Shown piece after piece: positions 53,116 to 55,449 of a stretch of 64,000 nucleotides of DNA. Source of the DNA: Halanaerobium congolense (GTDB lineage Bacteria; Bacillota; Halanaerobiia; Halanaerobiales; Halanaerobiaceae). The position numbers were made by a program, and so were the translations under genes. Location of the stretch: contig NZ_SOEF01000011.1 in assembly GCF_004366375.1 (NCBI RefSeq), forward strand, positions 1 to 64,000. Direction: 5' to 3'. Below the pieces are notes generated by a model. It saw only the letters and a list, made by a program, of their open reading frames with translations. It searched no databases and was not told the origin of the DNA. The stretch's first letter is position 1; every line of letters begins with the position of its first letter.

Positions 53116-54231
53116 TTATTCTTCCTGATTATATTCATCACTAATATAATTTTGAATAATCTCCATTGTAATTGTTGCTTTCAGATTATTATCACTGTCA
53201 ACTATAGGAATTAAAGTTACATCATTTTCTATCATTTTATTTAAGACGTCTTTTAAAGAGGCATCCTCTTCTATCACAGGAGTCATTTTTATATGTTTTT
53301 CCCAGTCAGACTCCTCATTTTCTTTGAGTCTTTTTAAATTAACATAACCCATTAATTTTCTTTTATCTGCAGTTACAAGAATATACTTCTGTTTTGATTC
53401 TTCCAGTTTTTTTATTACCTGTTCATAACTTTCAGATCTATCTGCTTTATAAAATTCTTTTTCCATTACTTTTTTAGCCTTTAAAAGATTTAAGACTTTT
53501 AATCCTCTATCTGAACCAATAAAATCTTCAACAAATTCATTTTTGGGGTTAAATAAAATATTTTTTGGAGTATCATATTGAACTAATTTCCCCTGATTCA
53601 TTATGGCAATTTTGTCCCCCATTTTAATTGCTTCATCAATATCATGAGTAACAAAACAGATAGTCTTATTAATCTTTTTCTGCAGTCTAAGAAATTCATT
53701 CTGGAGATCAGCTCTAGTAATAGGATCAACAGCCCCAAAAGGCTCATCCATTAACATAATTGGAGGATCTGCTGCCATTGCTCTGGCCACCCCCACTCTC
53801 TGCTGCTGACCCCCTGAAAGCTCATTAGGATATTTATCCAGATGGTTATCAGGATCCAGTCCAATAGTTTTTAGTAATTCTTTTACCCTCTTGTCAATTC
53901 TTTCAGGATCCCATTTTAATAATTTTGGAACAGTGGCTACATTTTCTTTAACTGTTAAATGCGGAAAAAGACCAATTTCCTGAATTACATAACCAATCTC
54001 TCTACGCAATTCACTTTTCTCCAATGAAATAGCATCTTTTTGATTAATATAAATTTTCCCGGAAGTTGGTTCAATTAATCTATTGATCATTTTAAGAGTA
54101 GTTGTCTTACCACAGCCAGAAGGGCCTACAAAAACGCAGATTTCGCCTTCTTTAACTTCTAAATTTAAATCAGAAACTGCCTCTTCTTCAGCAGTAAAAT
54201 ATGTTTTTGATAAATTTTCTAATTTAATCAA
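53116..54231 (-). CDS. opuCA: Osmolyte ABC transporter ATP-binding protein with tandem CBS domains
   Basis: A 371-aa ATPase of the OpuA/ProV type. Walker A is GPSGCGKTT, the signature LSGGQQQR, Walker B PPIMLMDEPFGAVD and the H-loop THD. Residues about 245-371 form two CBS repeats (KQKYILVTADKRKLMGYV and VTLIPIVDSDNNLKATIT), which in OpuA-type proteins sense ionic strength or cyclic-di-AMP. The start is a TTG 8 bases after AAGGAGG. It is the first gene of a four-gene operon importing betaine- or choline-type osmolytes, consistent with a salt-adapted cell. Confidence 0.94.
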   Translation of the reverse strand: MIKLENLSKTYFTAEEEAVSDLNLEVKEGEICVFVGPSGCGKTTTLKMINRLIEPTSGKIYINQKDAISLEKSELRREIGYVIQEIGLFPHLTVKENVATVPKLLKWDPERIDKRVKELLKTIGLDPDNHLDKYPNELSGGQQQRVGVARAMAADPPIMLMDEPFGAVDPITRADLQNEFLRLQKKINKTICFVTHDIDEAIKMGDKIAIMNQGKLVQYDTPKNILFNPKNEFVEDFIGSDRGLKVLNLLKAKKVMEKEFYKADRSESYEQVIKKLEESKQKYILVTADKRKLMGYVNLKRLKENEESDWEKHIKMTPVIEEDASLKDVLNKMIENDVTLIPIVDSDNNLKATITMEIIQNYISDEYNQEE

Positions 54232-54270
54232 TTAACATCCCTCCTTAAAAAGAAAAAAGCGTCTCCTATT

Positions 54271-54300
54271 GTATTATTCTAAATTTTAGAAATTAATCAA
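54271..54300 (-). promoter_or_regulatory. Probable promoter of the osmolyte operon
   Basis: TTGATT (54295-54300) and TAATAC (54271-54276) are 18 bases apart on the minus strand. TCTAAA-T-TTTAGA (54278-54290) is a palindrome within the spacer. The site may lie inside the left end of the IS110 relic. Confidence 0.45.
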
Positions 54301-54310
54301 ACTAAATAAT

Positions 54311-54339
54311 TTGTACTTCATTTTGTCTTTTGATATAAT
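54311..54339 (+). promoter_or_regulatory. Promoter of the IS110-associated RNA
   Basis: TTGTAC (54311-54316) and TATAAT (54334-54339) are exactly 17 bases apart, with TG one base before the -10 (extended -10). The predicted start, about 54346, falls on the first base of the first long hairpin. Confidence 0.8.
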
Positions 54340-54345
54340 TTACCT

Positions 54346-54590
54346 GGGATGGAGTATATTGCGGCTCTTTTAAAAGAGTAACGCTCTAACATTTGTGTAC
54401 TCCGTCCCATTTTCTTTTGTTTTATAAATTTGTTCATAATAGGTGGATTAGGCTAGTATCCTCCTTGCGGCTCTATCTTACTAGAGTAACGCTTTATACG
54501 AAACTGCCATCCACCTATTTTATCATCAGAGACGTTAAATAGGACGCTGCGAATCAACGCTAATCCAAATAGGGCACGCCCTGATGATAA
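54346..54590 (+). ncRNA. Candidate IS110 bridge RNA with three looped hairpins
   Basis: Hairpin 1: GGGATGGAGTA (54346-54356) with TACTCCGTCCC (54398-54408), 11 pairs including a U-G that only works in plus-strand RNA. Hairpin 2: 54438-54448 with 54509-54519, 11 perfect pairs. Hairpin 3: TTATCATCAG (54520-54529) with CTGATGATAA (54581-54590). The inner cores are GCGG-CTCT...AGAG-TAACGCT in hairpins 1 and 2 (54361-54385, 54467-54493) and a shorter GCG...AACGCT in hairpin 3 (54549-54561). Long base stem, internal loop, inner stem matches the loop design of bridge RNAs. Position upstream of an IS110 transposase supports this. Confidence 0.65.
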
Positions 54591-54622
54591 TTTAAATAAA
54601 TCTAATTAAGTAGCTGATCACT

Positions 54623-55122
54623 GTGGAACATCAAAACTACGTATTTGTCGATGTTGATACTCACAAAAACCAGCATACCGCCTATGTCTTAAACTGTTTT
54701 CATCAGAAAATAGTATTAACTCAAACCCCCAATAATCCAGCCAGTTTTGAAAGTTTTATTCAGGATATTAGTTCTTTCAAAACTCCTGATAAATCTGATG
54801 AAATTGACGCTGAAGCCAGAAATACTATCATCAAGAGCACAATTGAACACCTGAGATTACTTGCAAAATCTCTTGAGAAAATAAATAAGCAACTTAAAAA
54901 GGCAGTTGAGAAAAGTCAGTATCAGCTAACTACTATGCCTGGTATTAATTTTAAACTGGCTGCATTATTTATTTCCAATTAAACCATGCTTTTTATATGC
55001 TTGCATTCAAACAGGTAGGTAAAACCAAAAATAGCAAAATTAAAAATCCTGTTTCCTACAAGTACTACCAGAAAACATTGATTATGAAGTACTTGATAAA
55101 ACTGGTTAATTTAAATTTCTAG
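54623..55122 (+). pseudogene. IS110-family transposase, deleted and frameshifted
   Basis: From a GTG at 54623 the frame reads NYVFVDVDTHKNQHTAYVLN, the RuvC-like first-aspartate block of IS110 transposases. It then jumps to KSDEIDAEA, the second acidic block, and to LTTMPGINFKLAALFISN, the Transposase_20 entry. It stops after 119 codons, where intact proteins have roughly 400. The C-terminal remnant continues in another frame (54979-55122) as HAFYMLAFKQVGKTKN and NPVSYKYYQK, ending in a TAG. At least one internal deletion and one frameshift therefore inactivate it. Confidence 0.85.
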
Positions 55123-55306
55123 CAAATTTTAAAAAAGCTAATATCTAATCACTGAAAATTCTTAACTTAAAAACCAATCCCATTTTCTTTCATGGAATTT
55201 TTTAACTTTACATAGGATGTCTCGTATAATATAGTTAGTGACATTAAAAATTTATCACCATTTAAAAATAAATTTAATTGTTTCTATTAAGTTTGGATTT
55301 AGTCCC
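55123..55306. other. AT-rich stretch between transposase remnant and right-side structure
   Basis: No coding frame is supported. It contains TCGTATAA (55222-55229), an 8-base complement of TTATACGA in the right side of hairpin 2 of the upstream RNA. An ATGTC/GACAT pairing lies around it. Both may be chance in AT-rich DNA. Confidence 0.5.
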
Positions 55307-55449
55307 TGATATAATAATATTTAAAGATATCTAGGGTAGATTTAGCGTCTCCTTGTAGCATGTAAATACATGACTACTTTAAAAGTATGATCCCATGAAG
55401 CTGATATGAACTCCTTTTAATAAGTAGACACTTTCTAATCTATAGATTA
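55307..55449. ncRNA. Bridge-RNA-like loop structure at the right side of the IS110 relic
   Basis: TGaTATAAT (55307-55315) is again an extended -10. TAGATTTAG (55337-55345) pairs with CTAATCTA (55435-55442) with one bulge, and GTCT (55347-55350) with AGAC (55426-55429). Inside, CTCCTTG (55349-55355) is followed by the hairpin GTAGCATGTA...TACATGACTAC and CTTTA, the same order as CTCCTTG, inner hairpin and CTTTA in hairpin 2 upstream. It could be a relic of a related element or a leader RNA of the osmolyte operon read on the minus strand. Confidence 0.35.

What the first reader, a model, noticed from the sequence alone, without database searches (positions are those of the whole stretch)
54311..54590. 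Intact-looking bridge RNA upstream of a dead IS110 transposase
A 17-base-spaced extended -10 promoter starts transcription exactly at the first of three long-stem hairpins, and an IS110 transposase remnant follows. Two hairpins have a base stem, unpaired flanks and an inner stem with the shared core GCGG-CTCT...AGAG-TAACGCT. IS110-family elements are known to encode a bridge RNA with target- and donor-binding loops upstream of the transposase. Here the RNA is preserved while the protein is lost, so it may be used in trans by another copy or may have been co-opted.
Basis: partly seen in the sequence, partly recalled or inferred. Interest (0 to 1): 0.85.

Follow-up and report, generated by a model that had tools for sequence, protein, structure and literature searches.

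The report
IS110 bridge RNA in dead, nested transposon
The three hairpins are a genuine IS110-family bridge RNA, the RNA that tells this kind of jumping element where to insert, left behind in a recently broken copy sitting inside the remains of a second IS110 element; it is a new example of a known system, and it suggests that these guides often read ribosome-binding sites.

Summary
Window 54346-54590 is a real IS110-group bridge RNA. Nine related elements share it. The stems covary: 23 of 71 pairs show compensatory change and 0/500 shuffles match. Hairpin 2 is the target-binding loop: its right target guide matches each element's own right flank in all six elements testable (1/720 permutations). 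Hairpin 3 is the donor-binding loop: its guides covary with the element's own ends. Hairpin 1 is the accessory 5' stem-loop.

The transposase is dead (two deletions and an early stop). I found no intact relative in the held genome. dN/dS of 0.17 says most divergence predates death, so the RNA's preservation needs no co-option.

Unexpectedly, the right flank is the left end and target loop of a second IS110 family (B), with at least seven copies in one relative. B's guide matches the present left flank (shared 10-mer AGCGTCTCCT). The window element therefore appears to have inserted at B's left-end junction.

Left ends of this family sit directly before gene starts: 32/41 sites have an ORF start within 20 nt, against 9% of random positions. 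Many guides read Shine-Dalgarno-type sequence. IS900 is a precedent.

The parts
54263..55222 (+). IS110-A element remnant, left end (starts CCTATTG at 54265) to right end, with CT core at 54263-54264 and 55221-55222
   Evidence: Ends shared with intact relatives
54314..54339 (+). Putative bridge-RNA promoter: TTGTAC, 17 nt, TATAAT with TG before the -10
   Evidence: Sequence; -10 region conserved in relatives; not reported by the consensus scan
54346..54408 (+). Hairpin 1: accessory 5' stem-loop
   Evidence: Fold, covariation; absent from intact element G004
54438..54519 (+). Hairpin 2: target-binding loop
54454..54462 (+). Left target guide TAGTATC-CT; poor match to the present left flank (1 of 7)
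54493..54502 (+). Right target guide TTTATACG-AA; 7 of 8 complementary to the right flank CGTATAAT, one mismatch at the core
54521..54590 (+). Hairpin 3: donor-binding loop
54537..54546 (+). Left donor guide AAATAGGACG, matches the right end of the element (55210-55219)
54565..54573 (+). Right donor guide CCAAATAGG, pairs with the left end CCTATTG; carries a one-base insertion relative to all relatives aligned
54623..54982 (+). Dead IS110 transposase remnant, 119 codons, two internal in-frame deletions, C-terminal part lost
55221..55415 (+). Remnant of a second IS110 family (B): left end and target loop of its own bridge RNA
55341..55353 (+). Left target guide of element B, TTTAGCGTCTCCT; shares AGCGTCTCCT with the left junction at 54258
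53116..54231 (-). Host gene downstream of the left end: ATPase (ABC_tran and CBS domains) of an Opu-type uptake operon

Best explanation
54346-54590 encodes the bridge RNA of an IS110-group insertion sequence (5' stem-loop, target-binding loop, donor-binding loop), transcribed from a promoter inside the left end. In intact relatives, the DEDD recombinase would use hairpin 2 to pair with both strands of the target around a CT core, and hairpin 3 to pair with the element's own left and right ends in the circular form, and recombine at the CT. The window copy inserted at the left-end junction of an older IS110-B element in the leader of an Opu-type operon, then lost its transposase recently. The RNA here is a fossil guide, probably no longer in use. 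Shown: architecture, homology to intact elements, covariation, guide-to-flank and guide-to-end matches, the broken protein. Inferred: transcription, RNA-protein binding, the recombination steps, the order of the nested insertions, lack of present function.
For: Same RNA upstream of intact IS110 transposases in several genomes. Covariation: 23 compensatory pairs, 88% of cells paired, 0/500 shuffles, slid controls 35-48%. Right target guide matches own right flank in six of six elements, 1/720 permutations; left target guide P 0.00065; donor guides covary with element ends. Intact relative has both IS110 domains and matches solved IS621 and ISCro4 recombinases. Nested second IS110. Recent death: dN/dS 0.17.
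Against: No transcript data. The window copy's own left target guide fits its present left flank badly (1 of 7) and is explained only by a reconstructed loss of one CCT unit. Guide registers were set by eye before the permutation test, and only six elements have both flanks. The -35 is weak.
Confidence: 0.93

Rival explanations
1. The bridge RNA is kept because another transposase copy in the same cell uses it in trans, or because it was co-opted for another job.
For: The RNA region is more similar to the H. saccharolyticum copy (97-98.5% in hairpins 1 and 3) than the dead gene is (84%). The assembly is in 93 contigs, so a collapsed repeat could be missing.
Against: No intact A-type transposase in the held genome; only two A-type RNAs there, the other fused by deletion. 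The hairpin-3 region is conserved among living elements anyway, and dN/dS of 0.17 shows recent death. The window copy has two one-base insertions in hairpin 3, one in a donor guide. Other genomes also have bridge RNAs without a transposase, as expected from decay.
Confidence: 0.05
2. The hairpins are ordinary subterminal inverted repeats or an attenuator of the transposase gene, not a guide RNA.
For: They lie between a promoter and the transposase start.
Against: Guide-to-flank matches are element-specific (1/720) and donor guides covary with the ends; no terminator found.
Confidence: 0.02

Closest known systems
IS621 bridge RNA and recombinase (IS110 group; Durrant et al. 2024, PMC11208160; Hiraizumi et al. 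2024, PMC11208158)
   Same: RNA in the left end upstream of the recombinase gene; 5' stem-loop, then target loop, then donor loop; guides on both sides of each loop; CT core; recombinase with the same two domains.
   Different: Longer RNA (about 245 against 177 nt); hairpin 1 shares its inner core with hairpin 2; a complete promoter lies inside the left end besides the one expected at the RE-LE junction; targets are gene-start sequences rather than REP elements; here the recombinase is dead.
IS900 (IS110 family by my own knowledge; 'targets translation initiation signals', Doran et al. 1997, title cited in PMC8141618)
   Same: Insertion at translation start signals of genes.
   Different: Different lineage; I did not compare its RNA or ends, and did not read the 1997 paper.
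IS1111-group elements with seekRNA (Siddiquee et al. 2024, PMC11187229)
   Same: RNA-guided target choice by a DEDD recombinase.
   Different: In IS1111 the RNA lies downstream of the gene; here it lies upstream.

Membership tests
IS110-group bridge RNA (IS621 type) | Non-coding RNA in the left end, upstream of a DEDD/Tnp20 recombinase gene | tested here: met
   Intact relatives; remnant in the window:
[quoted passage not shown]
   G004 lacks the 5' stem-loop; G277 folds differently in hairpin 2 on its own
IS110-group bridge RNA (IS621 type) | Target loop pairs with left and right target | tested here: met
   Right guide 1/720 permutations, left guide P 0.00065 across elements; the window's left guide alone fails (1 of 7)
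IS110-group bridge RNA (IS621 type) | Donor loop pairs with the element's own ends | tested here: met
   Right donor guide 6-8 of 8; left donor guide 7-11 of 12; both covary with the ends
IS110-group bridge RNA (IS621 type) | Short core shared by LE and RE junctions | tested here: met
   CT at most junctions, TT in G023
IS110-group bridge RNA (IS621 type) | RNA is transcribed and bound by the recombinase | not testable with these tools
   No RNA or binding data
Functional IS110 element (this copy) | Intact recombinase | tested here: not met
   Two deletions and loss of the C-terminal part
IS1111 group | RNA in the right end | tested here: not met
   RNA lies upstream of the gene
Known Rfam family | Match to an Rfam 15 covariance model | tested here: not met

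The most novel reading that the evidence does not exclude
Two IS110 families in Halanaerobiales use bridge RNAs whose left target guide often carries a CCTC/CCCT stretch that reads the Shine-Dalgarno sequence in DNA. The left end is built so that after insertion its terminal AGG joins the core AG to rebuild a Shine-Dalgarno and places a -10-like box (TAGAAT) just upstream; this makes insertion tolerable and leaves left-end scars as gene leaders. In addition the window element's guide reads the other family's left end, so one RNA-guided element homes onto another.
Probability: 0.4. Interest if true: 0.72.

Novelty: new member of a known kind. Interest (0 to 1): 0.5.

Why it matters
It adds a clear bridge-RNA family with readable target and donor guides. 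It gives natural support for the two-loop model, because guides and element ends change together. It suggests that RNA-guided transposons in salt-loving Firmicutes home to ribosome-binding sites, which are abundant, conserved and lie outside coding sequence. It also corrects the idea that an intact-looking bridge RNA beside a dead transposase implies a new function.

Tried and rejected
Co-option from conservation: rejected as evidence, since dN/dS is 0.17 and window-unique changes (12 nonsynonymous, 10 synonymous) resemble those of the intact copy (12 and 13). Hairpin 1 as a guide loop: no large internal loops, no visible match to flanks (by eye only), and absent from G004. CorA match of the remnant (E 1e-4, below cut-off): taken as chance similarity. 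C40 IS110 as trans donor: 51% G+C contig and unrelated protein, so likely contamination. Short scars (TAGAATAACACAATAGG) as a plain host promoter motif: judged unlikely because there are only 0-6 exact 14-mers per genome, the reversed-pattern control found 1 in 38 genomes, and the variant tends to follow the local element's left end (AATATCACAACAGG with CCTGTTG), though G023's own A copy has a different end; not excluded for the shortest scars, some of which lie inside operons. The first empty-site comparison of the operon (G005) looked unrelated until the B remnant was recognised.

Full report
Observation. The segment 54346-54590 folds into three hairpins far more stably than shuffled sequence (z -4.6). 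An extended -10 with a hexamer 17 bases upstream precedes hairpin 1, though the -35 is weak and the consensus scan does not report it. An IS110 transposase remnant follows.

Relatives. The same left end and RNA lie upstream of intact IS110 transposases: G008, whose sequence is Halanaerobium saccharolyticum contig NZ_SNWX01000009.1 (L009, L021), G004 (76% identity), G023 (62%), G076 (63%) and G277 (44%), and of partial genes in G035 and G037. The G008 protein carries both IS110 domains and matches the solved IS621 and ISCro4 recombinases. Rfam has no model for this RNA.

Structure. On an alignment of nine RNAs, 88% of cells pair, 23 of 71 pairs have changes on both sides, and none of 500 shuffles reaches these values; slid versions pair in 35-48%. 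The weak part is the set of pairs inside the hairpin-2 internal loop, which is what guides should look like. The shuffle control does not keep relatedness, and G277's hairpin 1 is misaligned in it.

Target loop. In hairpin 2 the ten bases before ACTG are complementary to the core and right flank of the same element: window TTATACGA, G008 TAAAAG, G004 GTGTTAG, G076 TATTAAG, G277 TACAAG, G023 TATCAA. Own pairs give 33 matches of 48 against a permutation mean of 20.3, and only the true assignment of 720 reaches it. The bases before CCTTGCGG match the left flank (P 0.00065, nine elements). The window copy itself fails on the left side (1 of 7).

Donor loop. Hairpin 3 matches the element's own ends and changes with them. 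Right donor guides CAATAGG, CAACAGG and CACAATAA face left ends CCTATTG, CCTGTTG and TTATTGTG. Left donor guides ATAGGACG, ATAGGGAGTT, ATTGAACG and ATAGAACGT match the right ends of the same elements (sequences). By inspection, joining RE (TTGACA) to LE would also create a promoter, as described for IS621 (PMC11208160). Hairpin 1 has only small internal loops and is missing from the intact element G004. It corresponds to the 5' stem-loop of IS621, whose removal lowers binding and slightly reduces recombination (PMC11208158). All three hairpins share a TGCG...AACGCT core.

The dead protein. Against G008, the window gene has lost two internal stretches, each between short direct repeats (CCTGATAAA; GCTGAAGCC), and then stops at 54982. 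Identity to G008 is 97% in the 5' stem-loop, 98.5% in the donor loop (plus two single-base insertions), 85% in the target loop, 84% in the gene remnant and 77% in the right end. dN/dS of the remnant against G008 is 0.17, so most divergence arose while the protein was under selection. The preserved RNA therefore reflects recent death, not proven new use. The only other copy in the held genome, G000:C13, is also broken and has lost the sequence between the cores of hairpins 1 and 2. No intact A-type transposase was found, and the RNA model finds only these two copies there.

Nesting. The right flank from 55221 is repeated elsewhere in the genome. In G006, G007 and G009 it is the left end and target loop of a second IS110 family, B, followed by an IS110 transposase in G006 (PF01548 and PF02371) and a frameshifted one in G007. 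G009 has at least seven copies. The B guide in the window, AGCGTCTC-CT, shares the 10-mer AGCGTCTCCT with the present left flank of element A; this 10-mer occurs nowhere else in the window. So B most likely inserted first, guided to AGCGTCTC-CT; A then inserted at the junction, its right guide pairing with B's left end CGTATAA. If the junction originally read GCGTCTC-CT-CCTATTG and lost one CCT unit, A's left guide (GTATC-CT) would have faced GTCTC-CT. This last step is a reconstruction. The native leader resumes at about 55419, where it matches the element-free leader of the G005 ortholog. The host gene is the ATPase of an Opu-type uptake operon.

Target class. Left ends of family A and their scars lie within 20 bases of the start of an ORF of at least 60 aa at 32 of 41 sites, against 8.8% of random positions; most carry Shine-Dalgarno-like sequence at the junction. 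The B copies also have left flanks that read as the complement of a Shine-Dalgarno, most with a start codon. Guides are often of CCTC/CCCT type, and elements with other guides (G023, G004, G037) are not at a Shine-Dalgarno, so the RNA rather than the protein would set the target; this rests on few elements. At carB the scar-free orthologs have an ordinary Shine-Dalgarno where G000 carries TTTAGAATAACACAATAGG. The 41 sites are not all independent, since some scars are shared by orthologs. A left-target test on ten B copies, which used the reconstructed left flank for the window copy, gave P 0.01. IS900 was reported to target translation initiation signals (Doran 1997, cited in PMC8141618), so the target class has a precedent.

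Verdict. A genuine bridge RNA of an IS110 lineage that I did not find described, in a dead nested copy. The kind is known; the guide-to-ribosome-binding-site link and the nesting are the interesting parts and are partly inferred.

Noticed in passing
L020 (G000:C40): A 51% G+C contig with an unrelated intact IS110 and what looks like another transposase pair, against 33% for the window; likely contamination of the assembly.
   Followed up: partly
window 55221-55415; L192, L194, L199, L200, L204, L207, L209, L212, L213: A second IS110 family (B), with at least seven copies in one relative, all with left flanks like a Shine-Dalgarno complement.
   Followed up: partly
L052 (G000:C6), L092 (C9), L095 (C26), L100 (C19), L104 (C32) and others in the genus: Left-end scars of about 17-80 nt with no element attached, flush against the Shine-Dalgarno of genes such as carB and gcvH, some inside operons. 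The -10-like TAGAAT faces the gene.
   Followed up: partly
L193 and L200 (G006:C7:1045-1485): The left end and target loop of family B are duplicated in tandem, the second copy starting at a CT inside the first copy's RNA: perhaps a self-insertion or core-to-core recombination.
   Followed up: no
L022 (G004): An intact family-A element without hairpin 1, with a two-base shift (CT-AG) both at its left-end junction and (CT-AT) in its target loop.
   Followed up: partly
L188 (G037:C51) and L190 (G023:C35): Bridge-RNA remnants without a transposase next to them in other genomes: decay seems to spare the left end generally.
   Followed up: partly
window 54273-54300 (-): A promoter-like site (TTGATT, 16 nt, AATAAT) in the left end facing the Opu-type operon, whose native leader is split by about 1.15 kb of nested IS remains.
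   Followed up: no
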